A stretch of DNA of 40,451 nucleotides from Clostridia bacterium (GTDB lineage Bacteria > Bacillota > Clostridia > Oscillospirales > CAG-272), in NCBI GenBank assembly GCA_017461745.1, contig JAFTXE010000060.1:1-40451 (forward strand). Reading direction: 5' to 3'. Below the pieces are notes generated by a model. It was not told the DNA's origin. It worked only from the letters and a program-made list of their open reading frames with translations, and searched no databases. Each line of letters begins with the position of its first letter. The stretch's first letter is position 1. Positions 1 through 30,905 of this stretch are shown piece by piece. The position numbers were made by a program, and so were the translations under genes.

Positions 1-234
1 TCACAGACTGACAGTTACGAGCTGTCATCATAGGGATCTCACCTCCGCCGGGTTGCCCGCCGGCCGCGCATTTTGCACGGAAGTATCATTATCACCGCTA
101 TCTGTCATCTCCCTCCGCAAGTAGTAAGCTTGCAGCCGTTCACAGGAATAATCCCGATTATTATTCCGCGTTTCTGTGGCTTGTAGATCTCCCTACGATA
201 ACGGCAAGGTATCTGTTCAAGGTTATTTAATTGT
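1..234 (-). ncRNA. Candidate structured RNA, copy A (3' end cut by window edge)
   Basis: This stretch is about 90% identical to 19869-20096 and lies directly downstream of a perfect promoter on the minus strand. Read on the minus strand it contains several hairpins. A GCCGTT/AACGGC stem encloses a GTAGG/TCTAC hairpin and a GGAATAAT/ATTATTCC hairpin. It is followed by a CTGCAAG/CTTGCGG hairpin, a GCCGG/CCGGC hairpin and TGACAG/CTGTCA near the 3' end. An ACAGA near the 5' end can pair with TCTGT near the 3' end, closing the molecule. Differences between the two copies often keep pairing. I do not recognise a known family: it lacks the hallmark sequences of RNase P RNA, tmRNA and SRP RNA. The function is unknown. 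Confidence 0.6.
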
Positions 235-2763: not shown

Positions 2764-4821
2764 TTAGTAAGCAGTTCGGTTGAGTATAGCCCTTTGTTGC
2801 CATTCTGGCATATTTATAAAATATTCGCTAAAGCCATACAATCGTACAGTAAGACTCTTGTATTTATCAGGGGTCTTCATTGCATCTTCAAGCTCTCTCC
2901 GACTTAATACGGTAATACCCACGTGCAAACCGCCTTTTTCAAAGAATGTCGTTACCAAGGCTTTGAGTATTTCCGGCTTAACAGCACCAGAAAATGTCAG
3001 ATTAAATCCACCTGTTGCGGTTTTTTCAAGAGGTAGCCTTGATACGCTGTTTATAAGCGAGGTGATACCATTTCTGTCGGCGCCATAGGTAGGCGACTGA
3101 TTTTCACTGAACGGATCTCCCCAAAGCCGTCCATCGGGGGTAGCAGGAATATCTTTTGCCCATCTGTTGTCCTTATCCAATGAATAAAAGCCGGGGATAG
3201 CATATTTACCTTTTGGCAAGCTTATGCTGTTCACCATAGAAACAAAAGCCTCTCCGACCATAGCGGCATATTTGTCCACCGAAAGATCGTTTCCGTATTT
3301 GGGGAGTGAGGTGACGAATGCTAAAACGTCGTCGTTACCTTGATAATTTGACTTTACTATATCAATAAATTCGCGATAGGTAAAGCGCTTTTCCTCGAAA
3401 ACCAATTTATCTATGGCGGCGAGCGAATCTGCTACGGTAGCAATTCCCGAGAAGAATACGTTGTAAACGTGGTAAGTCAATCCGCCATTCAAGGGATAAC
3501 GGCATTTTTCAGTGCAATCACCAATGAGAAGTGCATCAAGAACAAATGCCTTTCTGTTTTTTGTAAACGAAACTTTTTGTTGAACGAGGTCTAAATGCTC
3601 TAACAAATTTTCTCTCAAAGCATCAAAATACGCCTCTACTATTTCATTGATGTTATCAAAATCTTTTTCGTAAATAACATTACAAAATGTTTGAACGGAC
3701 GGCAAAAAGTATTCTTCACGTATATTTCGATGATTTAGGTCAAAGGTACAACAAGCCGAATAGGTGAAGTCACTTGCAATTTCTTCGGACAAGCCCTTTT
3801 CCAACAGAAACGACTTTACAGAGGTGTATGAATAAACGTTCATCTTATCCGTCAGTACCGTTAAAGCCTCGAATGTTGCATCGGTAAATTTCTCGTTAGC
3901 GCCGGAGTCAAGTAGTACGACTATCTGGGGCTGCGCCATATTTACCTTTTTAGCTGCGGCAAGAATGGCGAATGAAAGCTCATTTGGATTTTCTCCGCCT
4001 ATATTTACGTACTGCTTTGAGGAGTTGCATAAAATAGGCTTACGCTTATAGTTCCACGACGTGCGTCCGCATATTTCGTTGGTTTTTATAAAGAATCCCG
4101 CAAGGATATCCTCTATTTCTTCTTTAGTCGTTCCGTTGGCAAGCTCCTTCAGATAATACGGATATAACGACTGATCCAAACGGCCGAAGGCGTAATCTCT
4201 TGCTCCTACGTAGCAGCTTGCTATTAGGTGGACGATCCACGCTCCCTGTAATGCGGAGTATAAATCGTATGCCGGCTCGTAGGGCACTCTTTCAAGCGCA
4301 TCGGCGGCTCTTGTTAATCCCTTACTACGAGCTGCATCTGCATATCTTTTGCTGTATCTGCGTATGGCTTCAACGACTATGCGGGCGTTTTCATAAAACA
4401 CCATTGATTTTTCATCGCTGCGTTGCTCGGCGTTTTTCTTTATATCGGCGAGTATTCCCTTATATCCCTTCTGCCATAATCTTGCGTATTCGGGACTCAT
4501 ATGTCCGTTGGATTTAAGCGTTCTATTGGGAACTCCCTCGAAGCTATCGAGTACACCTTCAACAACACGACCGACAAAAATATCATTTTCATCTACCGGA
4601 ACGGATACGTTGTCAAGCATTCCCGCCAAAATGTTAGCGTGATAATTTAATGATTCAACATTATATACACTTGTGTCGAGATTATTTAAAAATTTCTCTC
4701 GTTCTATAAAACAAGCTGTATTATCACTTTCAAAAACAAGCTCTTTTAGATAATTTAATTTTTCGTTTATTATTTTCATATCAATTTTACCAAAAAGCGT
4801 ACGGATAAAAGAGAAATACAA
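2764..4821 (-). CDS. Glycyl radical enzyme of unassigned subfamily
   Basis: The 685-residue product has the C-terminal glycyl radical loop RLYGFSEYF with Gly663, in place of the commoner RV-x-GYSAYF. The conserved TPDGR-GDPFSENQSP-G stretch precedes it and a GGLHVGI strand lies near 635. The active-site cysteine loop reads SACCTFD, with a Cys-Cys pair at 357-358 as in pyruvate formate-lyase. The usual GCxEP glutamate of dehydratases and lyases such as glycerol dehydratase or choline lyase is absent. The protein is shorter than most family members (750-850 residues). A TTG start at 4819-4821 is chosen because AAGGAGG lies at ideal spacing; the in-frame ATG 14 codons later has no such site. Substrate unknown; neighbours suggest a sugar- or polyol-derived compound. 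Confidence 0.9.
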   Translation of the reverse strand: MYFSFIRTLFGKIDMKIINEKLNYLKELVFESDNTACFIEREKFLNNLDTSVYNVESLNYHANILAGMLDNVSVPVDENDIFVGRVVEGVLDSFEGVPNRTLKSNGHMSPEYARLWQKGYKGILADIKKNAEQRSDEKSMVFYENARIVVEAIRRYSKRYADAARSKGLTRAADALERVPYEPAYDLYSALQGAWIVHLIASCYVGARDYAFGRLDQSLYPYYLKELANGTTKEEIEDILAGFFIKTNEICGRTSWNYKRKPILCNSSKQYVNIGGENPNELSFAILAAAKKVNMAQPQIVVLLDSGANEKFTDATFEALTVLTDKMNVYSYTSVKSFLLEKGLSEEIASDFTYSACCTFDLNHRNIREEYFLPSVQTFCNVIYEKDFDNINEIVEAYFDALRENLLEHLDLVQQKVSFTKNRKAFVLDALLIGDCTEKCRYPLNGGLTYHVYNVFFSGIATVADSLAAIDKLVFEEKRFTYREFIDIVKSNYQGNDDVLAFVTSLPKYGNDLSVDKYAAMVGEAFVSMVNSISLPKGKYAIPGFYSLDKDNRWAKDIPATPDGRLWGDPFSENQSPTYGADRNGITSLINSVSRLPLEKTATGGFNLTFSGAVKPEILKALVTTFFEKGGLHVGITVLSRRELEDAMKTPDKYKSLTVRLYGFSEYFINMPEWQQRAILNRTAY

Positions 4822-12895: not shown

Positions 12896-13984
12896 TTAAT
12901 TGTTGTAATACGTATCTGCCACGAATTGGCAAGCAGAGAGCGGATCGTTTACCATTGCTCCATTGACTCCGTAGCTCAAAAGCTTGGCGTATGCCTCTGC
13001 GTTCTCGTATGCGTAGCAATCGGCGTGAAGTCTTATCTTATCTTTTATATAATTAAGATTTGTCGAATGCGTACTGAAGAAGGTATCTATACCGGCTACG
13101 TTTGTCACCGTATCCTTCCAGCCCGAGAAACGCGCGATCATAGGCATTCCGTTCTTGGCTAATTGGTTTGCCCGATCAGTCCATGAGTCGCTCGTTGAGG
13201 TCGTCAGCTGCGCAAGATAGTAGGGAGCAAGTCCGCCCGCGCTGTCGGGTATCTTTGTCTTAATGTCGTTCAGACAGTAATATCCGTACGATATGCCAAC
13301 GCCGCCGATATATATCATGGTATCCCAAGCCTCATGCTTTGCAAATATGGGAAATGCAATATCGGCTACGTCGTTTCGGGTGAATGCTTTACTTGTCGAG
13401 TCGTAATCAAGCTCAAGCTTGTCGCAATAGAGGAACATTCTTCCCTTTGCTACTATGACCGCCTCTTCAAGTGTGGGGATAAGATAGTCGGTCACAGCCG
13501 CATTAGTTCCGCCTGCGCCAGCCTTAAGTCTTAAGCAACGAAGCTCTGCAAGCGTCCAATCACTAACGTTTGCTGACATGGGCAAGGTCATTCCGTTTAC
13601 CGTCTTTCCCGCCATGTCCGAGAAATTCGTGGTCTTGGTAAGCGTTTCGTCATGCACAAGCACGGGAATACCGTCCTTGGAAACTCTGACGTCAACCTCG
13701 CACACGTCAACTCCCATCATACAAGCGCTTATTATTGCTTCAATGGAGTTTTGGGGATACCTTGCCGTATCACCTCTGTGCGACCATACCATAAATCTTC
13801 CGTCGGGATCGTTCAATGCCTGTCTCTTTTCCTCAAAGTCAAGCATTTCTTCGGGAACGTCGAACTCGCCCTCCCAGCTAAGCTTCATAGCCGTGGGGTC
13901 ACTTATGTAATCTTCTCTTTTGACTGACTCAGTCTCGTCAAAGATTACCTCCGTCGCAGTAGGAATAAACGAGGAGATTGTCAA
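12896..13984 (-). CDS. Glycerophosphodiester phosphodiesterase domain, +1-frame part of a secreted fusion
   Basis: This frame encodes a GDPD TIM barrel with the HRG motif (VWSHRGDTARYPQNSIEA), CEVDVRVSKDGIPVLVHDETL carrying the metal-binding Glu-x-Asp and catalytic His, and a conserved end MVNDPLSACQFVADTYYN. These enzymes hydrolyse glycerophosphodiesters to glycerol 3-phosphate and an alcohol. The open frame alone has no signal peptide and only a TTG with no ribosome binding site near 13984. It overlaps the end of the secreted protein at 13938-15320. The stretch after 13939 aligns residue by residue with the second locus (27983-28924). I conclude that it is normally made by a +1 frameshift at 13937-13952, giving one 807-residue secreted protein. 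Confidence 0.85.
   Translation of the reverse strand: MTISSFIPTATEVIFDETESVKREDYISDPTAMKLSWEGEFDVPEEMLDFEEKRQALNDPDGRFMVWSHRGDTARYPQNSIEAIISACMMGVDVCEVDVRVSKDGIPVLVHDETLTKTTNFSDMAGKTVNGMTLPMSANVSDWTLAELRCLRLKAGAGGTNAAVTDYLIPTLEEAVIVAKGRMFLYCDKLELDYDSTSKAFTRNDVADIAFPIFAKHEAWDTMIYIGGVGISYGYYCLNDIKTKIPDSAGGLAPYYLAQLTTSTSDSWTDRANQLAKNGMPMIARFSGWKDTVTNVAGIDTFFSTHSTNLNYIKDKIRLHADCYAYENAEAYAKLLSYGVNGAMVNDPLSACQFVADTYYNN
13937..13952 (-). promoter_or_regulatory. RF2-type programmed +1 frameshift site, locus 1
   Basis: On the minus strand the message reads GGA GGT AAT CTT TGA C. GGAGGT (13947-13952) is a strong internal Shine-Dalgarno sequence, separated by one codon from the slippery CTT (13941-13943), which is followed by TGA (13938-13940) and C. 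This is the same order and spacing as the autoregulatory site of prfB, AGG GGG TAT CTT TGA C. Slipping one base gives Leu-Asp-Glu-Thr and enters the GDPD frame. Confidence 0.82.
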
Positions 13985-15320
13985 CAGTTATGGTATCAGC
14001 GTTAACAAAATAAAGTCCTATACTATACGTTCCGTTTGTCTGGTCAGTATTCCAAAGCAATCCGTCAAGAGTTTGTGTCGTCTGATCGGCATGATTATAA
14101 ACACTATACGTGTTATCAACCATGTCCTTGTGAATAGTATAGGTAATAGTCAATTTATTATTACCAATTGTTCCTGTATATGTTTGTTGCGAAAACCACC
14201 TTGTAGTGCCCGCGGCTTCAGCTACGAACAGCCACGCACTGTTATCGTTTGTAAGAAATCTTCCTCGTGATTGCCATGTGTCATCATCACAAACAGCAAG
14301 ACCTATTCCACCGCCCTTTGTTCCGCCAAATACAACGTCAAACTGAAGAACAAACGTGTCTTCTCCGTTAGCAAATAAAATATCACTATTAAGACCGGGA
14401 ATGGTCAAAAGAGAATGAGCCATATCATGACCGGTCATTGTCGATTCCCAGTTATCTATATATTCTTGCTCTTCTGTATGTCCCTCTCGAGCGCTTTGGG
14501 TTGTATTAAATACCAAAGTTCCGTTATTGTATTTTGCTTTTACATCTTTTCCGTAGATATAGTTCGCTCCACTTGCGCAGAAATTATCTTTCCAACCAAG
14601 GAAAGTTGTAGCGTCAGCAAAATCTGCGGTATTTGCCATATCGTCGTATGCTTCGAAATAGCGTACTTTAGATATGTCAGGAGCGTCATTTCCAAGCTTT
14701 GTTACAAGGAATTTATTTGCAAAATCGTCTATAAGATTTTTGCCGTCTGTTCCAAGATTTTCGTCGTTGGCAAGATACGCGCGATACGCAACGTAGCCGA
14801 CAGTTCTCGAGGAGTCAGCCTCGTTGTACTCTGCATAAACCACCTCGTCGCCAACCTTAACGTATCCGATACCCGAGAAAGAAAGCATTACGTTGTCGTC
14901 AAGAATGTTCTCAAGAGAGCCTGCGTAAACGTAGTATTCCGTGTCTTCAACTGTTTCGGTATCAAAGGGATTTGCATAAGTAGCCTTTACTTTTACGTAA
15001 GCGGCGTTCTCAAATCCCTTAACTTCCTTGTAAGCGTCGAGCGCTTCCATAGTAAACGCGCTTGCGCCCTTAACATACTGCGTGGGGGTAATAAGAGTAC
15101 CTATCTCAACGTTTGAAGCACCGTTTGCTGTAACAATAGCATCAAGCTCTGCCTTATTTATCATGGTCTGGAAGCGTATTCCCGCAACATCACCTATACG
15201 GACGGAAGCACCCTCAACTGCTTTCATATCAAGTGTAAGAGGCGTTTCCGCAAAAGTTCCTATACTGAACATACCAAGCAACATTATGGTTGCAAGAAGA
15301 AAGGATATTATTTTTTTCAT
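13938..15320 (-). CDS. Secreted protein with shared surface domain and concanavalin-like domain, zero-frame part of fusion
   Basis: The 460-residue zero-frame product begins with a clear signal peptide (MKKIISFLLATIMLLGMFSI, cleavage after TFA). Residues 30-200 contain a domain with SVRIGDVAGIRFQT, GTLITPTQYV, a YYVYAGSL strand and VGYVAYRAYL. The same domain closes the zero-frame part of the protein at 29007-30905. Residues 215-455 resemble a concanavalin A-like jelly roll ending in VDNLLVYS, a signature also ending both repeats of the lipoprotein at 15485-17362. The frame ends in TGA inside an RF2-type frameshift site, so a fraction is expected to continue into the GDPD domain. AGGAGG precedes the ATG. 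Confidence 0.85.
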   Translation of the reverse strand: MKKIISFLLATIMLLGMFSIGTFAETPLTLDMKAVEGASVRIGDVAGIRFQTMINKAELDAIVTANGASNVEIGTLITPTQYVKGASAFTMEALDAYKEVKGFENAAYVKVKATYANPFDTETVEDTEYYVYAGSLENILDDNVMLSFSGIGYVKVGDEVVYAEYNEADSSRTVGYVAYRAYLANDENLGTDGKNLIDDFANKFLVTKLGNDAPDISKVRYFEAYDDMANTADFADATTFLGWKDNFCASGANYIYGKDVKAKYNNGTLVFNTTQSAREGHTEEQEYIDNWESTMTGHDMAHSLLTIPGLNSDILFANGEDTFVLQFDVVFGGTKGGGIGLAVCDDDTWQSRGRFLTNDNSAWLFVAEAAGTTRWFSQQTYTGTIGNNKLTITYTIHKDMVDNTYSVYNHADQTTQTLDGLLWNTDQTNGTYSIGLYFVNADTITVDNLLVYSYCDGGNL

Positions 15321-15337
15321 TTTTACATCCTCCTATA

Positions 15338-15457
15338 TCATACTTCCAACGCCCAAGCGAGATCATTCTCGGCGGGGTCCGGGTCTCCGCTTGACGCAAT
15401 AACGTCAGCGATGTGTATTAATACCTCTATTTGAGGCTCGGAATATAATTTTTTCAT
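15338..15457 (-). CDS. Small peptide of the (Y/W)xxP leader type, 39 aa
   Basis: A short reading frame from ATG 15455-15457 encodes a peptide beginning MKKLYSEPQIEVLIHIAD, with SSGDPDPAEND following and LEV at the end. AGGGAGA lies at suitable spacing. It fits exactly between two secreted-protein genes and has the same layout as the 48-residue peptide at 27817-27963: Lys-rich start, aromatic residue then Pro, (I/V)E(V/L)L(I/V)I, AD, and a Ser-Gly-Asp/Asn-rich second half. This pattern recalls leader regions of ribosomally made, modified peptides, but no modification enzymes are nearby. Function unknown. Confidence 0.6.
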   Translation of the reverse strand: MKKLYSEPQIEVLIHIADVIASSGDPDPAENDLAWALEV

Positions 15458-15484: not shown

Positions 15485-17362
15485 TCACTGTGCCGTATAA
15501 TAATTATCCTGATTATCGGTTGCAGGGGGATTTTCATCTCCGCTGTAAACTATAAGATTGTCAAGAAGTGCATTGTTGCCGTATTGAAGAGCAAATCCAA
15601 TAGAGTTGCTCGTAGCCGCTACCAAAGAATCATATCCGTCGGACAATGCGCTCGTAGTTCCCGCGAGAACGAATTCACTCATTACGGCGGTCTTCGCGTA
15701 GATCTTTATAGTGTTGGTAGCAGGATCAACAACTATTCTTACCGTGATTGCTCCAACGTCGCTCTCACGAAGCTTATTACCAAGAACCTGACCTCTGTTC
15801 ATAAGAGAAACGTCCGTAAGAAGCTCATTTGTTGTACCGGAACCGGTGGTGGTAAGATAATCAAGACGCACATGTCCGCCTGCGGCAACTCCGCAAGCAA
15901 CGCCGTTCGCACCGTCCATATTAAGTATTATATCAAACATTGCTGCCCATGATGCGGTATCTATATCGAGTGCTCCGTCACCATTAACATCCTTACAACC
16001 GTAAGCGATATCATACTGTATTGTGAATTTTTCGTTATAAAGCGCAGCCATCTTTACAGCATCGTCAAGAGCCGCTATCTTAAAGAAGGAATATTTTCCG
16101 GTAGTATCCTTTTCTCTCGTATCTCCTGCAAATCCCGAGAAGCTACTCATCATCAAGCGTCCGTTGTCTATCCACATATACGTGGTAAGTCCGCCGTCGC
16201 TGACACAGGTAATTCCAAGATCCTGCATAAGCTGAGTGCTGATACCGTTAACGGTGTTTACATCCATTATTCCGTTTTCAAAGGAGCTTTCATAATCGAA
16301 ATCTTCATAATAGAATATAGTGCCGCTACCAGCCTGCTGTCCCGTAGATTCTCCGCTAAAGTTGTCGGGAACTATGGTTACGGGACATTCACCGAGTCCT
16401 GAATAAACGAGAATGTTATCATAGTATGCGTTAAGACCGCCACAGTTGTGAAGAACAACCGCCTTGGATGCTGCCGCCATCCAACCAACATATCCGTTGC
16501 CCATTACGGTCTCTCCAACCTTAACGAAAGCGGTATCGGGATCGGTGGATTTCTTAACGTAGAATATCGGTCCCTTTTCGGGATCTATCTGAAGTCTTAC
16601 CGTAACGGAAAGATTGAGCAGAGGCGCCGTTGCTCCGGGTGCTTCGTTCAAAAGCGCGCCTGAAATACTGCTTGCTGCGGTATTTCCTGTTGCGGCAATT
16701 CCGCTGTTACCCAAAGCATACGCCTTACCCGCGGTTATGTTTTCAAACAAACCTGTACCGCTGGCACGTACCGCCGCATCCGTCCAGTTGTTCTCACTGA
16801 AATTTACTACAATAGAGGACAATGCATTTGCGTTTGCAATATCGTGTGTAAATGCGATATCATACTGCAGAGTGTAGCCACCGGGAGCCAGTGTCTGCAT
16901 AACCTCATCGTTGAGCTGTGAAATCGCATAAAATGAGTGTCCCGGAACCGTAGCATCTCCTACATTCCAAGTATTAACGTGAAGTCTGCCATTCTCAAAA
17001 TCAAACTTAACATCCGATTCACCCATAACCTTGTCTGCTTCAACAGTAAGCTTCTTCCAGTTGAGGGTAGCAAGTGCGGAGTTGTCGGTCGTGTTTGAAT
17101 ACTTTTGGAAATCTTCAAAGTAGATTACCTGACCGTCGGGAAGCTTTGTGCCTTCGCCTTCACCTTCGCCTTCACCTTCGCCTTCACTCTCGTCTCCGTT
17201 TCCACCTCCGTTATCATTGGATTCCGAATCTGATGAGGATTTATTGGTGTCGGCTTGTGTTTCCGTTTCGCTATCTTCTGTGGTTGTACCGTCGTCACAA
17301 GCAATGAAAGACAAGCACATAATCATAGCTAACAACAGAGCTAAAATTTTTGTTACTTTCAT
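15485..17362 (-). CDS. Large surface lipoprotein with two jelly-roll repeats
   Basis: The product of about 625 residues starts with a lipoprotein signal (lipobox LSFIAC) and a very acidic Asp/Glu/Ser/Gly linker that ends in a GEGEGEGEGEG run. Two related domains of about 250 residues follow. Each starts with (V/F)(I/Y)YFEDF, contains a YTLQYDIAF or FTIQYDIAY strand and closes with LDN(I/L)(L/I)VYSG, typical of concanavalin/LamG-like carbohydrate-binding folds. An EF-hand-like DVNGDGALDID occurs in the second. The start is ATG 17360-17362 after AAGGAGA; the longer in-frame start lacks a signal peptide. A near-consensus promoter at 17516-17544 makes it the first gene of an operon. Probably a glycan-binding surface protein. 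Confidence 0.8.
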   Translation of the reverse strand: MKVTKILALLLAMIMCLSFIACDDGTTTEDSETETQADTNKSSSDSESNDNGGGNGDESEGEGEGEGEGEGTKLPDGQVIYFEDFQKYSNTTDNSALATLNWKKLTVEADKVMGESDVKFDFENGRLHVNTWNVGDATVPGHSFYAISQLNDEVMQTLAPGGYTLQYDIAFTHDIANANALSSIVVNFSENNWTDAAVRASGTGLFENITAGKAYALGNSGIAATGNTAASSISGALLNEAPGATAPLLNLSVTVRLQIDPEKGPIFYVKKSTDPDTAFVKVGETVMGNGYVGWMAAASKAVVLHNCGGLNAYYDNILVYSGLGECPVTIVPDNFSGESTGQQAGSGTIFYYEDFDYESSFENGIMDVNTVNGISTQLMQDLGITCVSDGGLTTYMWIDNGRLMMSSFSGFAGDTREKDTTGKYSFFKIAALDDAVKMAALYNEKFTIQYDIAYGCKDVNGDGALDIDTASWAAMFDIILNMDGANGVACGVAAGGHVRLDYLTTTGSGTTNELLTDVSLMNRGQVLGNKLRESDVGAITVRIVVDPATNTIKIYAKTAVMSEFVLAGTTSALSDGYDSLVAATSNSIGFALQYGNNALLDNLIVYSGDENPPATDNQDNYYTAQ

Positions 17363-17515
17363 AATTGTTCTCCTTATCTTTGAATTAAGTATAAGTTGTT
17401 CATTGTTATTAAAATATCGCAGCCATGCTGATTTAATATCCACCACCATCCCCTTAAATAAAATACCATTGCCGTTAAGTCAGCGTTTGTTGCATATATT
17501 TATAACTTCGTTACA

Positions 17516-17854: not shown

Positions 17855-19675
17855 TTACAGATGAGATGAATATGCTTCGGATAAGAAACTCTTCAACACG
17901 TCTATCTCGCTCTGAAGCTTTTTGCCGATATCCGTTTGCTTGACGAGTATTCTACTGTCATACTTTCTCAGTTGTCTTACCTCGCTTCTGAGATCGGATG
18001 CGTTATTTACTACGTCCTCGCTTGACGTAAACGGCTGATGACAGATAAGATAAAGACCTTGTGAGTTATTTACAAGTGTATATCCTGCGATGCCTGTCTT
18101 CTCGTGGTACGCCTTGGACAGTCCTCCGTCTATGGTTATGTGTCTGCAATTTCCGCTTTCGGGGCTTTCCCCGCTCTTTACCTTGACGGGCATATGACCG
18201 TTGACTATGACGGAATTATCTCCCGTCGCGCCGAACTCCGTAAGCACCCTCAGACAAAATTCTTCTTGGTTTACGAGACTATAATATTCGTCCTTGTTTT
18301 CCTTTTCGACATACCGCTCAAAGTATTTAGTATACACGCACATTTTGTCACGTCCGTACAGGGGAGATTTCTTACCGCACCACAGATACCACATATAGTC
18401 AACGGAATATTTATCTCCCTTGGCGGCATCACGAACAAGCGCGTCAAGTCTGTCGTAAAGGCTCTTGCCCGAATATTTATCATCACCAACGCTTATCTGT
18501 GAAAAGCTACCGTCCATCTCCGTTGGAACACAGCCGTGCATAATAAGATTATCATTGAACACCTTATACATACTGCCGTACTTGAGAAGCATTCTCATAT
18601 GCTCACCAAGTCGCTTACTGTGTCTGAACTCGTCAGTCAGAACTTCAATAAGCTTTTCTTCCTTTTCGGTCAGCGTGTTCGAGGGGTACAGTATTCTATC
18701 GTTCATACAAAATTCGGGATGCTCGGATATAAGTCTGTTTTCCAGCTTTAGCTGTATTACCGTTATAGCCTTTGTCATACGGGCAAGAATCTCGTCCTTT
18801 TCAAAGTCGCTCTCACATCCGTATATGTCGGAAATAAGAAAAGCCTCACATTTGTCGTCAGCGTATTCCTCTGATGCAAAGGTAACGAGAGGGCGAAGAT
18901 TTATACCGTAATTTTCTATGACCTGAAGATTTCTGTAAACGCAATTTATCCTTATTACGTTGCACATACACGCGGCATTACCGAAGTATGCGCCCATCCA
19001 AAGAACGTCGTGGTTGCCCCACTGTATGTCAAAGGAATGAAAGCGAGATAGCTCATCCATTATGATATCACAACCATTGCCTCGGTCGTATATATCTCCA
19101 ACGATATGAAGATGATCCACGGCAAGATGATGTATGAGTCTCGCCATCTCGATTATAAATCTGTCGGCGTTGCCAAGCTCGATTATGCTTGACACGATCT
19201 CCGAATAATAATTCGCCTTATCGATACTGTGCTCAGGCATATTTATAAGCTCATCCATTATGTAGCGGTAATCCTCGGGCATTGCCTTTCTTACCTTTGA
19301 ACGGGTGTATTTTGCCGATACGAGCTTGGATACCTCAATAAGATCATAGATGGTCTGTCTGTACCAAGATGGAGTGCATACGTTATCATCATTTTTCAAA
19401 ACACGCTCGGGGTAATATATAAGCGCTGCGAGCTTATTCTTCTCCGTCTCGGACATTCTTTCTCCAAATGCAAGGTCAATTTTTGTCCTTATGACGCCTG
19501 ATGCATTGCGGAGAATGTGGAGAAAGGTCTCTGACTCTCCGTGAATGTCACTCAAAAAATGCTCTGTGCCTTTTGGTAAGTTGAGTATGGCTTTAAGGTT
19601 TATCAGCTCACTTATAACCGACTGCGCCGTCGGAAATTGCTTTGCAATTATTCTGTTGGTTCCGTTATCGTTCAA
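17855..19675 (-). CDS. fbp: Fructose-1,6-bisphosphatase, class III
   Basis: The 606-residue protein is the large Firmicutes-type FBPase. It carries a calcineurin-like phosphatase core with HFLSDIHGESETF near residue 41, a HIVGDIYDRGNGCD segment, the WGNHDVLWMGA motif and NGHMPVK. It dephosphorylates fructose 1,6-bisphosphate in gluconeogenesis. The start is TTG 19673-19675 behind AGAGGT. It has its own perfect promoter at 19720-19748, so it is transcribed independently of the structured RNA gene further upstream. It is a housekeeping gene between two accessory blocks. Confidence 0.95.
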   Translation of the reverse strand: MNDNGTNRIIAKQFPTAQSVISELINLKAILNLPKGTEHFLSDIHGESETFLHILRNASGVIRTKIDLAFGERMSETEKNKLAALIYYPERVLKNDDNVCTPSWYRQTIYDLIEVSKLVSAKYTRSKVRKAMPEDYRYIMDELINMPEHSIDKANYYSEIVSSIIELGNADRFIIEMARLIHHLAVDHLHIVGDIYDRGNGCDIIMDELSRFHSFDIQWGNHDVLWMGAYFGNAACMCNVIRINCVYRNLQVIENYGINLRPLVTFASEEYADDKCEAFLISDIYGCESDFEKDEILARMTKAITVIQLKLENRLISEHPEFCMNDRILYPSNTLTEKEEKLIEVLTDEFRHSKRLGEHMRMLLKYGSMYKVFNDNLIMHGCVPTEMDGSFSQISVGDDKYSGKSLYDRLDALVRDAAKGDKYSVDYMWYLWCGKKSPLYGRDKMCVYTKYFERYVEKENKDEYYSLVNQEEFCLRVLTEFGATGDNSVIVNGHMPVKVKSGESPESGNCRHITIDGGLSKAYHEKTGIAGYTLVNNSQGLYLICHQPFTSSEDVVNNASDLRSEVRQLRKYDSRILVKQTDIGKKLQSEIDVLKSFLSEAYSSHL

Positions 19676-19861: not shown

Positions 19862-20096
19862 ATACCTCTCACAGACTGAAGGTTACGAGCTGTCATCATA
19901 GGAATCTCACCTCCGCCGGGTTGCCCGCCGGCCGCGCGTTTTGCACGGAAGTATCATTATCACCGCTATCTGTCATCGCTCTCCGCAAGTAGTAAGCTTG
20001 CAGCCGTTCCCAAGAATAATAATTATTCCGCGTTTCTGTGGCTTGTAGGTCTCCCTACGATAACGGCAAAGTATCTGCTCAAGGTTATTCAGTTGT
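19862..20096 (-). ncRNA. Candidate structured RNA, copy B (complete)
   Basis: This is the full-length counterpart of 1-234, transcribed on the minus strand from a perfect promoter. The 5' part (ATAACCTTGAGCAGA) and the 3' part (TCTGTGAGAGGTAT) can pair to close the molecule. Internal stems include GCCGTT/AACGGC, GTAGG/CCTAC (a G-U pair in copy A becomes G-C here), GAATAA/TTATTC with a shortened loop, CTGCAAG/CTTGCGG and GCCGG/CCGGC. Near the 3' end GGAGGTG precedes ATGATG; a 27-codon frame follows but is probably incidental. No terminator T run is visible at the end. The family is not recognised. Confidence 0.62.
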
Positions 20097-27982: not shown

Positions 27983-28924
27983 TTAATCGTTGTAATACGT
28001 TTGTGCCACAAATTTACAAGCACTTAGCGGATCGTTTACCATTGCTCCGTTGATACCATTTTCATTGAGCAACTTAAACACGTCTTCTTCAGTACATTTG
28101 TAGCAATCTGCGTACAATCTCATTTTACTCTTTATTTTCGCAAGGGAGTCATTCTGTTCATTAAGAAATATGCCGACCTCGTCACTACTCACAAAACCAC
28201 TACCTGAAACGGAAATACGCGCAAGCATCGGCATATTGAACGATTCAAGTTGCTCCGCTTTAGTCACTCCGTCAGAACAGGCCTCATTGCTAAATATCGC
28301 TTGATAGTAAGGAATCAACATTCTATTCTCCGTCTTATCCAAAAGAAGTTTTCTACAGTTATTTCCGACTATTACGCCCATTCCTGCGTTATATATCATA
28401 GTATCCCAAGCCTCATATCTTTCGAATATTGGGAATGCTATATTGACTACATCGTTCCTGGTAAATCCGGTATTTGTTGTATACTCAGTATCAAGCTTAT
28501 CGCAAAGCAGAAACATTCTGCCATTTGCTACTATAACCGCTTCTTCAAGCGTGGGGATAAGGTATTCGGTCACAGCCGCATTCGCTCCGCCCGTGCCTTC
28601 TTTAAGTCTGAGGCAACGAAGCTCTGTAAGAGTCCATTCACTGACATCTTCTGACGTGGGTAAGATGATTCCATTTACCGTCTTACCTTTCATGACTGAA
28701 AAGTTGGTCGTTCTTGTAAGCGTGTCATCATGCATAAGCACGGGGACATCGTCCTTGGAAAAACTCACGTCTATCTCGCATACGTCAACGCCCATCATGC
28801 AGGCGCTTATGATGCCCTCAATGGAATTCTCAGGATAGTGTACAGATTCACCTCTATGCGCCCAAACCATAAATCTTCCGTCGGGGTCATTTAATGCCTT
28901 TCTCTTTTCCTCGAAGTCAAGCAT
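27983..28924 (-). CDS. Glycerophosphodiester phosphodiesterase domain, +1-frame part of second secreted fusion
   Basis: The frame encodes a GDPD barrel closely related to the one at 12896-13984: VWAHRGESVHYPENSIEG, CEIDVSFSKDDVPVLMHDDTL and the end MVNDPLSACKFVAQTYYND. The first ATG is at 28922-28924, but homology with the other locus extends upstream in the same frame to 29017 (REEYIEDPTALKLSWEDEFD). That stretch has no ATG, GTG or TTG codon, so it can be reached only from the upstream frame. A one-base slip at CTT (29019-29021) yields a 973-residue secreted protein. HRG, Glu-x-Asp and the catalytic His are intact. Confidence 0.87.
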   Translation of the reverse strand: MLDFEEKRKALNDPDGRFMVWAHRGESVHYPENSIEGIISACMMGVDVCEIDVSFSKDDVPVLMHDDTLTRTTNFSVMKGKTVNGIILPTSEDVSEWTLTELRCLRLKEGTGGANAAVTEYLIPTLEEAVIVANGRMFLLCDKLDTEYTTNTGFTRNDVVNIAFPIFERYEAWDTMIYNAGMGVIVGNNCRKLLLDKTENRMLIPYYQAIFSNEACSDGVTKAEQLESFNMPMLARISVSGSGFVSSDEVGIFLNEQNDSLAKIKSKMRLYADCYKCTEEDVFKLLNENGINGAMVNDPLSACKFVAQTYYND

Positions 28925-29006
28925 TTCTGCGGGGACATCAAACTCGTCCTCCCAACTGAGTTTAAGGGCGGTGGGGTCTTCTATGTATTCTTCTCTTGTG
29001 ACATAT

Positions 29007-30905
29007 TTAGTCTTGTAGAAGATACCCCCTTATGGTCTTAAGTTCGGATTCTGCCCCATCTTTCGCGTCAGGATTGTAAGGACTATAGGAAGCTACTTCA
29101 CCAATAGCATACTCGCTGTTTGCAGGAATCACATACTTGTAAGTATCGTTTGGGGTATCACTTCTGTCATAGTAAGCTGCATTGGCAACGTAAGCGATAC
29201 TTCTTGTTGCGTACTGTCCCGAATAAACGATATCATCGTTGATCGTTACGTAGCCGATAGCGCTGTAATCCCAATCGTAGTTAGCTTCCTTGATGTCTGT
29301 AATAGAGCCGCAGAAGTAGTAATACTTATCATGCTCCATGTCCGCGCCTTTAAGGTCACTGTTGAACACATCCGTTCCGGTAACAGTGGAATTTACGTCA
29401 AGGTAGTTGCCCTCGTTAAGTGCGTCAGCGGTGAAAACATTATTAGCCTTTGCAGGGTCTGTAAGATAGTCGTTGGGAGTTATGAGAGTACCGAAGTCCA
29501 AAGAAATTTCTGCCTTTGTCAGTACAGCATAATCCGCTTTGTTAACAGCGGTTGAAAATCTCAGACCCGAAACACCATCCTTGTTAAGTCTTACGGAAGC
29601 GGTCTTCAGAGTATAGAATGAAAGGCTGTAAAGCTTTTCGCCGTTTTTAAATACATATCCGTGATTAGCATCTGTAACAGGGTAATTGTCATTTGTAGCG
29701 CCGCCATCGTTGATATTCTGATAGTATACCGTCTTGCCGATAGCTGCGTTCATGTCAAATGCAAGTTTACCTGATGCGAGTTCGTTTGATTTAAATGACG
29801 TAGCATTTATAGTGCCACCTTTTTCCGTATAGCTATAATATGCATCAACAGAAATGTCTGAATTATAGTAATTATTTCCTATATCCGTATCACTTGTAGT
29901 TCCCCAATATAATTGTCCTATTTGAGTTCCCGTAATATTTCCATTATTGTAGCATCCCTCCACCTTGGTAGCAGAGTAAGCCATTCTTCCCACAATTCCT
30001 GCCACACAAGTTGTGTCACCTAAAATATCTCCGGTATTGTAGCAATAATAAATGCTAAGTTCAACTGCCTCTTTATAACTGTATGCAACTATACCGCCAA
30101 GACTTTCCGTACCTTCGATTTTAGCCTCATTACCACAGCTTGTAATGGAGACCTTACTTGCTGCCTTCATATATCCTACGATACCTGCGGCATATTTAGC
30201 AGACTCTATTTCTCCTCGGTTTGTGCATTGAGCTATTGTTGTATCAGTACCGTTTAACATTCCTACTATTCCTGCCGCTATGTTGGTACCTGAAGATATA
30301 TTTCCCGTGTTTATACAATTCTCAATTGTTAAGGTAGAACCACTGGCATATCCTATTATTCCACCTGCAGGAGTTGATGTTGAACCTTCTGCTGTTTCTA
30401 TATTTCCGGTGTTCGTACAGTTAATGAAATCTGCACTTGTATTGTAAACAAAGCTTGTCAATCCTGCTGCTGTAATATAATTGGAGGAAATGCCCGTCCA
30501 CGCTCCTGATGTAAGATTTTGAGCGTTAGTAACTGATGCATTGTTTGTAACGTTTTTAAAGGTTGTTTTGTTGGTGCCCGTTACAAGACTTGCAAGAGCG
30601 GCATAACCTGTAACCTCGCCGTCAATGGTAAGATTTTCAACGGTAGTACCGCTTACCGTCTTAAAGAGAGGTACGCTTGTGGTAACGGTATAACCGTTTC
30701 CGTTAAGCGTGCCCGTAAATTCCTCAGTTACCGTTGCAGTAACGGTTACAGGACCCGTAAGATAATAGTTAACGTTGTCATCAGTTTGTGCCACTTGAAG
30801 AATTGTTTTGTCTTCTGCCGATACGCTTAAGGGTATCATTGTAAATAGCATTAACAATGAAAGGACAAGCGCAAGCAGCTTAGTTATTTTTCTTCTGTTT
30901 CGCAT
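29007..30905 (-). CDS. Secreted GLUG-repeat protein with shared surface domain, zero-frame part of fusion
   Basis: The 632-residue zero-frame product has a signal peptide (LLALVLSLLMLFTMIPLSVSA). Residues 60-330 are repeats of about 25-30 residues of the form (A)GGI(I/V)GY..., C.NTG.I, typical of GLUG-like beta-helical surface domains. Residues 435-600 contain SVRLNKDGVSGLRFST, DFGTLITPNDYL, YYYFCGSITDI and RSIAYVANAAYY, the same domain as residues 30-200 of the protein at 13938-15320. The frame ends RGYLLQD; RGYL is encoded by AGG GGG TAT CTT, identical to the frameshift site of E. coli prfB. It probably continues into the GDPD domain by a +1 shift. Confidence 0.85.
   Translation of the reverse strand: MRNRRKITKLLALVLSLLMLFTMIPLSVSAEDKTILQVAQTDDNVNYYLTGPVTVTATVTEEFTGTLNGNGYTVTTSVPLFKTVSGTTVENLTIDGEVTGYAALASLVTGTNKTTFKNVTNNASVTNAQNLTSGAWTGISSNYITAAGLTSFVYNTSADFINCTNTGNIETAEGSTSTPAGGIIGYASGSTLTIENCINTGNISSGTNIAAGIVGMLNGTDTTIAQCTNRGEIESAKYAAGIVGYMKAASKVSITSCGNEAKIEGTESLGGIVAYSYKEAVELSIYYCYNTGDILGDTTCVAGIVGRMAYSATKVEGCYNNGNITGTQIGQLYWGTTSDTDIGNNYYNSDISVDAYYSYTEKGGTINATSFKSNELASGKLAFDMNAAIGKTVYYQNINDGGATNDNYPVTDANHGYVFKNGEKLYSLSFYTLKTASVRLNKDGVSGLRFSTAVNKADYAVLTKAEISLDFGTLITPNDYLTDPAKANNVFTADALNEGNYLDVNSTVTGTDVFNSDLKGADMEHDKYYYFCGSITDIKEANYDWDYSAIGYVTINDDIVYSGQYATRSIAYVANAAYYDRSDTPNDTYKYVIPANSEYAIGEVASYSPYNPDAKDGAESELKTIRGYLLQD
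29015..29030 (-). promoter_or_regulatory. RF2-like +1 frameshift site, locus 2
   Basis: The minus strand reads AGG GGG TAT CTT C TAC. AGGGGG (29025-29030), TAT and CTT (29019-29021) match the prfB signal base for base, but CTA replaces the TGA stop and the zero frame ends three codons later at TAA (29007-29009). Slip of tRNA-Leu from CUU to UUC is sterically as good as the CUU to UUU slip of prfB. The pause would have to come from the internal Shine-Dalgarno and the CUA codon. Confidence 0.7.

What the first reader, a model, noticed from the sequence alone, without database searches (positions are those of the whole stretch)
12896..15320. RF2-type programmed +1 frameshift fusing a secreted surface protein to a GDPD enzyme
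The zero frame ends in GGA GGT AAT CTT TGA C, the same layout (internal Shine-Dalgarno, one spacer codon, slippery CTT, TGA, C) that lets prfB regulate itself. The +1 frame continues as a GDPD enzyme that otherwise has no signal peptide and no good start. The fusion is exactly in phase: 460 codons plus 347 gives 807 residues. I know of this signal as a hallmark of release factor 2 genes; here it would tie the ratio of bare to enzyme-bearing surface protein to TGA termination efficiency.
Basis: partly seen in the sequence, partly recalled or inferred. Interest (0 to 1): 0.93.

Follow-up and report, generated by a model that had tools for sequence, protein, structure and literature searches.

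The report
Frameshift-joined secreted hydrolases of Clostridia
In bacteria related to the Oscillospiraceae, genes for predicted secreted surface proteins run straight into an enzyme encoded in another reading frame, and a conserved slippery sequence at the joint, of the kind otherwise known from release factor 2 genes, is predicted to make some ribosomes change frame and so add the enzyme to the protein.

Summary
On the minus strand, a 460-codon ORF with a predicted signal peptide ends GGA GGT AAT CTT TGA C, and a GDPD continues in +1 for 347 residues. A second GDPD pair 15 kb away has the same kind of joint, AGG GGG TAT CTT CTA, as do two other genomes. Downstream of the joint all six pairwise dN/dS values are 0.11-0.25, and the 31 codons before the first shared ATG are also constrained, so the GDPD frame is evidently translated from at or before the joint. 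In 0.94 Mb scanned, 32 SD-NNN-CTT-Y sites occur; only the four GDPD joints combine a long ORF ending there with a long +1 ORF. TGA after CTT occurs only in the focal copy of the four (others CAA or CTA), and this genome's own prfB has no frameshift, so RF2 sensing is not the general rationale. Ten further loci join the same stalk domain to other out-of-frame ORFs; all five -1 cases have an in-phase slippery heptamer, and in-frame fusions to the same enzyme types exist. Frameshifting itself is inferred, not measured.

The parts
13938..15320 (-). zero-frame predicted secreted protein, 460 aa: signal peptide (by eye), stalk domain, lectin-like jelly roll
   Evidence: stalk domain 14718-15227; AlphaFold model, mean pLDDT 76; Foldseek hits to CBM66 and legume lectins among others. 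No Pfam or NCBIfam match
13947..13952 (-). internal Shine-Dalgarno-like GGAGGT, 3 nt upstream of CTT
   Evidence: SD-like hexamer at the same spacing in L008, L009 and the paralogue
13941..13943 (-). predicted slip codon CTT (followed by T)
13938..13940 (-). zero-frame TGA stop, followed by C; of the four joints only this one has TGA here
12896..13939 (-). GDPD in the +1 frame, 347 aa plus stop, without signal peptide
   Evidence: dN/dS 0.12-0.25 against three relatives
29007..30905 (-). paralogous zero-frame predicted secreted protein, 632 aa, with the same stalk domain at its C-terminus
   Evidence: domain 29127-29618
29025..29030 (-). SD-like AGGGGG of the paralogous joint
29019..29021 (-). 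predicted slip codon CTT of the paralogous joint; the next zero-frame codon CTA (29016-29018) is the rarest Leu codon in 26 window genes (3.1%)
29007..29009 (-). zero-frame TAA of the paralogous joint, after CTA CAA GAC
27983..29017 (-). paralogous GDPD in the +1 frame, 344 aa plus stop, 60% identical to the focal GDPD

Best explanation
This is likely a programmed +1 ribosomal frameshift: at a conserved Shine-Dalgarno-NNN-CTT site at the end of a predicted secreted stalk/lectin-like protein, some ribosomes would slip +1 and add a GDPD-family enzyme that is encoded in the +1 frame. The anatomy, its conservation and the selection on the +1 frame are shown; the slip itself, its efficiency and secretion of the product are inferred. 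Proposed steps: (1) translation starts at the surface protein's ATG, giving the signal peptide; (2) at the joint the SD-like hexamer pairs with 16S rRNA three nucleotides before CTT, straining the P site; (3) tRNA-Leu on CTT re-pairs on TTY one base on, helped by a slow next codon (TGA followed by C in the focal copy, rare CTA in the paralogue and L009, CAA in L008); (4) ribosomes that do not slip stop within four codons and release the bare stalk, those that slip make stalk plus GDPD. The result would be two secreted forms from one gene at a set ratio. Other loci of the same stalk family appear to use the same device with other out-of-frame ORFs (metallo-beta-lactamase fold, endonuclease/exonuclease/phosphatase) and with -1 slippery heptamers.
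For: Same joint and same +1 relation in four loci of three genomes, two of them diverged paralogues. AGG GGG TAT CTT CTA CAA GAC is identical in the paralogue and L009, although synonymous sites differ at pS 0.74 in their zero frames and 0.59 in their GDPD frames; AGG, GGG and CTA are rare codons here (8%, 4%, 3% of their families in 26 window genes). GDPD-frame dN/dS 0.11-0.25 in 6 of 6 pairs. In the 31 codons between CTT and the first shared ATG pN/pS is 0.16-0.38 in 6 of 6 pairs, and L008 and the paralogue have no ATG/GTG/TTG there. Of 35 listed zero-frame homologues of the focal protein, 20 end in GDGGYL plus 0-3 residues although their lectin part is 32-94% identical to the focal one, 13 end differently, one is an in-frame EEP fusion, and one is the focal copy itself. 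4 of 32 motif sites in 0.94 Mb have the full layout, all GDPD joints. In-frame fusions of the same stalk to MBL and EEP enzymes exist. All 5 of 5 -1 joints carry an in-phase X_XXY_YYZ heptamer versus 4 of 121 other terminal loci (Fisher p 5e-7; classes set by my inspection).
Against: No reporter, proteomic or ribosome-profiling data. The DNA comes from draft, largely metagenome-assembled genomes, and only four GDPD joints were available as DNA. Relatives of this GDPD without an N-terminal partner exist (L045, L050, P0021), so an unsecreted product is conceivable. An ATG after 17 codons of the +1 frame (focal, L009) or the conserved ATG of MLDFEEK could start a shorter protein; an upstream TTG (focal) and GTG (L008) lie inside the overlap. 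Three of four joints lack the TGA that stalls prfB ribosomes, and GGAGG and GGGGG sit one base differently relative to CTT. T-runs at -1 joints are also mutation hot spots. A crude background control was not clean (22 of 297 other genes).
Confidence: 0.82

Rival explanations
1. Two proteins, not one: the GDPD is translated separately by termination-reinitiation or internal initiation, and the SD-like sequence serves as its ribosome-binding site.
For: Frames overlap and the SD-like sequence lies just before the zero-frame stop. ATGs occur downstream (MKLSW in focal and L009; MLDFEEK in all four); TTG (focal) and GTG (L008) occur upstream in the overlap. Unsecreted GDPD relatives exist (L045, L050, P0021). 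Nearby ATGs also exist in some other joints (L121, L219, L137, L299, L304).
Against: No start codon at usable distance downstream of the SD; L008 and the paralogue have none in the 31 codons that are nevertheless under protein-level constraint. Those codons correspond to internal sequence of longer in-frame secreted homologues such as P0041. The separate product would lack a signal peptide, while 24 of 29 distant homologues with a long in-frame upstream part have a signal-peptide-like start.
Confidence: 0.1
2. The frame change is an old indel (pseudogene, phase variation or assembly error) without function.
For: Draft and metagenome assemblies; G- and T-runs lie at several joints; frame breaks at homopolymers are common mutations.
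Against: The same frame relation recurs in four loci of three genomes, including two paralogues 60% identical in the GDPD; dN/dS is below 1 on both sides; the zero-frame tail is conserved in 20 of 35 listed homologues. For the single -1 loci this rival is weaker than frameshifting but not excluded.
Confidence: 0.04
3. One reading: the in-frame TGA makes enzyme output a sensor of RF2 and TGA termination efficiency.
For: The focal copy has the complete CTT TGA C. Some zero-frame homologues end exactly at the Leu codon (P0129, P0131, P0146, P0195), so other TGA copies may exist.
Against: A-site codon is CAA or CTA in the other three joints; own prfB lacks the frameshift; P0174, whose lectin part is 94% identical to the focal one, ends GDGGYLQQD, as L008 does, so TGA looks derived.
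Confidence: 0.12
4. For the T-run (-1) joints, transcriptional slippage rather than ribosomal frameshifting joins the frames.
For: T7 runs at L120, L137, L219 and L121.
Against: The L295 heptamer is G_GGT_TTT with only four T; strong hairpins follow the slip site at L219 (z -6.0) and L121 (z -4.0), as at ribosomal -1 sites, though L120 and L276 show none.
Confidence: 0.2

Closest known systems
prfB (release factor 2) autoregulatory +1 frameshift
   Same: SD-like AGGGGG or GGAGG, three-nucleotide spacer, CTT slip codon, +1 direction; the focal copy also has TGA followed by C. Passages of PMC12421855 give AGGGGG, CTTT, TGA and C as the conserved elements; PMC5009743 (passages) notes GG_GGG is sometimes GG_AGG.
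   Different: Gene is a predicted secreted protein plus GDPD; the slip lies at the end of a 460-667-codon ORF whose own product looks complete; three of four copies have a sense codon after CTT, and CTTC instead of CTTT; no autoregulatory logic.
Bacterial -1 programmed frameshifting at X_XXY_YYZ heptamers (IS elements, dnaX)
   Same: In-phase T_TTT_TTT, T_TTT_TTC or G_GGT_TTT at five stalk-enzyme joints, some with a following hairpin; PMC4066793 (passages) describes the motif class in E. coli.
   Different: Predicted secreted proteins with a C-terminal hydrolase, not transposase or DnaX; same structural position as +1 joints of the same family.
GeneTack programmed-frameshift clusters (Mg chelatase, DUF111, DUF772, spore germination; PMC3711429, section 19 part 1 and passages seen)
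   Same: Conserved frame transitions in cellular genes with in-frame fused homologues.
   Different: The words glycerophosph and beta-lactamase do not occur in its main text; the SD-CTT +1 cluster that I saw described there is prfB.
In-frame secreted GDPD, MBL and EEP fusions of related bacteria
   Same: Same enzyme types, same (MBL, EEP) or analogous (GDPD) predicted secreted N-terminal parts.
   Different: One continuous frame, so a single fixed product; the 29 in-frame GDPD cases lack the stalk domain.

Membership tests
prfB-type SD-stimulated +1 frameshift signal | SD-like purine hexamer three nucleotides upstream of the slip codon | tested here: met
   4 of 4 GDPD joints: GGAGGT or AGGGGG, then NNN, then CTT
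prfB-type SD-stimulated +1 frameshift signal | slip sequence CTTT | tested here: inconclusive
   CTTT in the focal copy; CTTC in L008, L009 and the paralogue
prfB-type SD-stimulated +1 frameshift signal | in-frame TGA directly after CTT, followed by C | tested here: not met
   met in 1 of 4 joints (focal); CAA or CTA in 3 of 4. So it works like prfB but is not a copy of that signal as a family
prfB-type SD-stimulated +1 frameshift signal | gene encodes release factor 2 | tested here: not met
   GDPD, PF03009; own prfB is elsewhere and uninterrupted
prfB-type SD-stimulated +1 frameshift signal | measured +1 frameshifting dependent on SD and CTT | not testable with these tools
   needs a reporter assay
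GDPD (PF03009) | match above the Pfam gathering score | tested here: met
   84.9 bits against 23.6
GDPD (PF03009) | catalytic HRG, ExD and HD motifs | tested here: met
   HRG, EVDV, VHDE in the translation; the motif list is recalled, not from a call
-1 programmed frameshift (other stalk-enzyme joints) | in-phase X_XXY_YYZ heptamer | tested here: met
   5 of 5 -1 joints; 4 of 121 other terminal loci
-1 programmed frameshift (other stalk-enzyme joints) | downstream stem-loop or other stimulator | tested here: inconclusive
   z -6.0 (L219), -1.7 (L137), -1.65 (L295), -0.4 (L276), -0.1 (L120)
pseudogene or decayed frame | relaxed selection downstream of the frame break | tested here: not met
   dN/dS 0.11-0.25 in 6 of 6 pairs
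translationally coupled separate gene | start codon at usable distance from the SD | tested here: not met
   none in the 31 codons after the slip in L008 and the paralogue; an ATG after 17 codons (focal, L009) is out of range of the SD

The most novel reading that the evidence does not exclude
A family of predicted secreted stalk proteins in Oscillospiraceae-type Clostridia uses ribosomal frameshifting as an interchangeable joint: at the same structural position, prfB-like +1 sites and -1 slippery heptamers each attach a hydrolase (GDPD, metallo-beta-lactamase fold, EEP phosphatase/nuclease) to a fraction of the molecules, a Gag-Pol-like dosage device for extracellular enzymes. It would be the first recurrent use of the release-factor-2 signal outside prfB known to this search.
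Probability: 0.6. Interest if true: 0.9.

Novelty: new variant of a known kind. Interest (0 to 1): 0.8.

Why it matters
The SD-CTT +1 signal is described as a hallmark of prfB: PMC10885494 (passages) states that all +1 RECODE entries with the CUU-stop motif are prfB. Here essentially the same signal sits in predicted secreted proteins, in three of four copies with a sense codon instead of the stop, in a genome whose own prfB lacks it. That separates the mechanical part of the signal (SD plus CTT) from its release-factor logic and gives natural variants to test. It also suggests that one gene can make a bare and an enzyme-bearing surface protein at a fixed ratio, and that gene callers split such proteins and lose the enzyme's signal peptide: none of the 36 close GDPD relatives that I read (P0005-P0040, some of them fragments) starts with a signal peptide by eye.
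Full report
What is there. On the minus strand the ORF 15320-13938 encodes 460 residues with a signal-peptide-like start (MKKIISFLLATIMLLGMFSIGTFAE, by eye), a stalk domain and a lectin-like C-terminal half, and ends GGA GGT AAT CTT TGA C. In the +1 frame 347 codons follow, matching Pfam GDPD at 84.9 bits against a cut-off of 23.6.

The same joint twice in one window. A search of the own genome with the GDPD found a second copy 60% identical at 27986-29023. It too follows, in +1, a predicted secreted ORF (30905-29007, 632 aa), and its joint reads AGG GGG TAT CTT CTA CAA GAC TAA. The +1 frame there has no ATG, GTG or TTG before the ATG of MLDFEEK.

Other genomes. One scan of genome contigs gave two relatives: L008 (SVQL01000011.1, Oscillospiraceae bacterium SIG616) and L009 (JAGAPH010000095.1, Clostridia bacterium, water deer cecum), both with the split in the same phase. 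L008 has GGA GGT TAT CTT CAA CAA GAC TGA; L009 has AGG GGG TAT CTT CTA CAA GAC TGA. I inspected 35 more distant loci. 29 are complete at the 5' end and have at least 100 in-frame residues upstream of the GDPD; 24 of those show a signal-peptide-like start by my heuristic, and none carries the stalk domain. Of the other six, L045 and L050 look unsecreted and four run off the fetched stretch. P0021 is a further unsecreted type among the close proteins.

Is the +1 frame translated, and from where? Nei-Gojobori dN/dS downstream of the slip is 0.11-0.25 in all 6 pairs of the four loci (L009 covers only 138 codons). The 31 codons between CTT and the first shared ATG have pN/pS 0.16-0.38 in all 6 pairs; these counts are small (about 17 synonymous sites) but agree. 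Ribosomes therefore appear to enter this frame at or before the joint, where L008 and the paralogue have no start codon in that segment. L008 does have a GTG, and the focal copy a TTG, upstream within the overlap, neither with a recognisable SD (by eye). That favours frameshifting over initiation.

Is the signal selected? In 0.94 Mb (one strand counted, both scanned; about 0.91 Mb distinct) of window plus loci there are 32 sites of eight SD hexamers followed by NNN CTT Y. Four have a zero-frame ORF of at least 100 codons ending within 12 codons and a +1 ORF of at least 100 codons; these four are the GDPD joints. Because the loci are homologous, four is not four independent events. The paralogue and L009 share 21 of 21 nt from AGG to GAC while synonymous differences are at pS 0.74 (zero frame) and 0.59 (GDPD frame). 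AGG GGG TAT CTT would be the coding of RGYL with probability 0.001 under window codon usage. Among 35 listed proteins related to the focal lectin-like part, 20 end GDGGYL plus 0-3 residues, 13 end otherwise (YKAEAAA, YNSASN and the like), one is an in-frame EEP fusion (P0202) and one is the focal copy itself. P0174, 94% identical to the focal lectin-like part, ends GDGGYLQQD, as does L008; so the focal TGA looks like a derived state. Zero-frame and GDPD proteins in the metagenome listings share exact longest-contig lengths in four cases (P0127/P0018 23122, P0132/P0035 8558, P0131/P0030 5473, P0178/P0007 58301), which suggests but does not prove that they are neighbours.

RF2 logic. Own prfB (G000:C51) matches TIGR00020 over positions 4-353 of 353 without an internal stop and shows no SD-CTT-TGA. 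With CAA or CTA after CTT in three of four joints, termination by RF2 cannot be the general control. CTA is the rarest Leu codon in 26 window genes (3.1%), so a slow A site is a plausible substitute; that is inference, and CAA in L008 is not rare.

The wider family. The zero-frame partners share a stalk domain (alignment A2) that often ends its protein. Searching it in genera g1 and g29, in the family and in the order, and fetching regions for part of the hits, gave 193 distinct hits, 126 of them within 40 residues of the zero-frame stop. Twelve of the 126 have a long out-of-frame continuation that I judged to be a partner rather than a separate gene with its own start and signal peptide: +1 in the paralogue, L009, L119 (MBL by Pfam), L233 (247 aa, unidentified), L304 and L299 (similar to in-frame MBL fusions) and L121 (EEP by Pfam); -1 in L120 (EEP by Pfam), L219 and L295 (similar to in-frame EEP fusions), L137 (MBL by Pfam) and L276 (similar to MBL fusions). 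With focal and L008, where a lectin-like domain intervenes, this makes 14 loci in seven genomes, six of them in this genome. L121, L219, L137, L304 and L299 have an ATG near the joint, so for them a separate start is not excluded. In-frame fusions of the same stalk to the same enzyme types exist (P0162, L275, L247 for MBL; L220, L225, L302, L135, L118 and others for EEP).

-1 joints. All five have an in-phase X_XXY_YYZ heptamer with Y = A or T in the last 25 codons; so do 3 of 114 terminal loci without a partner and 1 of 7 +1 loci, L121 (Fisher p 5e-7). Around the domain end of in-frame proteins 6 of 51 have one (35-codon stretch). Hairpins directly downstream are strong at L219 (z -6.0) and L121 (z -4.0), suggestive at L137 and L295, and absent at L120 and L276. 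Since homopolymers also mutate easily, individual -1 loci are less secure than the GDPD joints.

What it works like, and what it is. It works like the prfB frameshift (SD, spacing, CTT, +1) but fails two defining features of that family: it is not release factor 2, and the in-frame TGA is met in only one of four joints. I therefore call it a new variant of programmed frameshifting. PMC10885494 (passages) says all +1 RECODE entries with the CUU-stop motif are prfB; PMC3711429 (section 19 part 1, and word searches) names other frameshift families, none of this kind in what I saw. My literature searches listed nothing on these proteins.

What is shown and what is inferred. Shown: the layout, its conservation, selection on both frames, motif statistics, in-frame relatives. 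Inferred: that ribosomes slip, how often, that the product is secreted, what the stalk binds and what the GDPD cleaves. Given a predicted lectin-like partner, a surface-held phosphodiesterase acting on glycerophosphodiesters or teichoic-acid-like polymers is a guess.

Noticed in passing
window 19896-19960 and 28-92, minus strand: Two copies of the Rfam pemK cis-regulatory RNA motif (RF02913; 73 and 69.8 bits against 34.8), one about 220 nt upstream of the FBPase_2 gene 17855-19675, one at the window edge.
   Followed up: no
window 15338-15457, minus strand: A 39-codon ORF (MKKLYSEPQIEVLIHIADVIASSGDPDPAENDLAWALEV) lies just before the focal gene, whose AGGAGG follows its stop; looks like a small leader or precursor-like peptide gene.
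   Followed up: no
window 15485-17449, minus strand: A 654-aa predicted lipoprotein-like protein (LSFIACDD) with two repeats ending DN(I/L)(L/I)VYSG; a relative lies at the same place next to the GDPD locus in L008. No Pfam match.
   Followed up: partly
L121 (G000:C22:4000-13000), joint at 4352-4465: A T_TTT_TTG heptamer and a strong hairpin resembling that of L219, but the EEP lies in +1 instead of -1 relative to the zero frame; slip direction, phase variation or an indel cannot be told apart.
   Followed up: partly
L233 (G000:C88:7500-11600), minus strand: Stalk protein ends CTT CAA TAA and a 247-aa unidentified ORF follows in +1; same CTT CAA as L008 but no SD.
   Followed up: partly
L226 (G018:C52:53500-58000), oriented position about 3629: A 731-aa ORF ends and an ORF resembling (by eye) the region upstream of the metallo-beta-lactamase domains follows in -1 without signal peptide; possible further case outside the stalk family.
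   Followed up: no
P0005-P0036 (metagenome proteins): Close GDPD relatives differ in patches of alternative sequence (for example LVFDYNSTDGVVENGVAG in P0022 against LELEYDSTNKVFTRNDVAD in P0013), as if segments were exchanged between copies.
   Followed up: no
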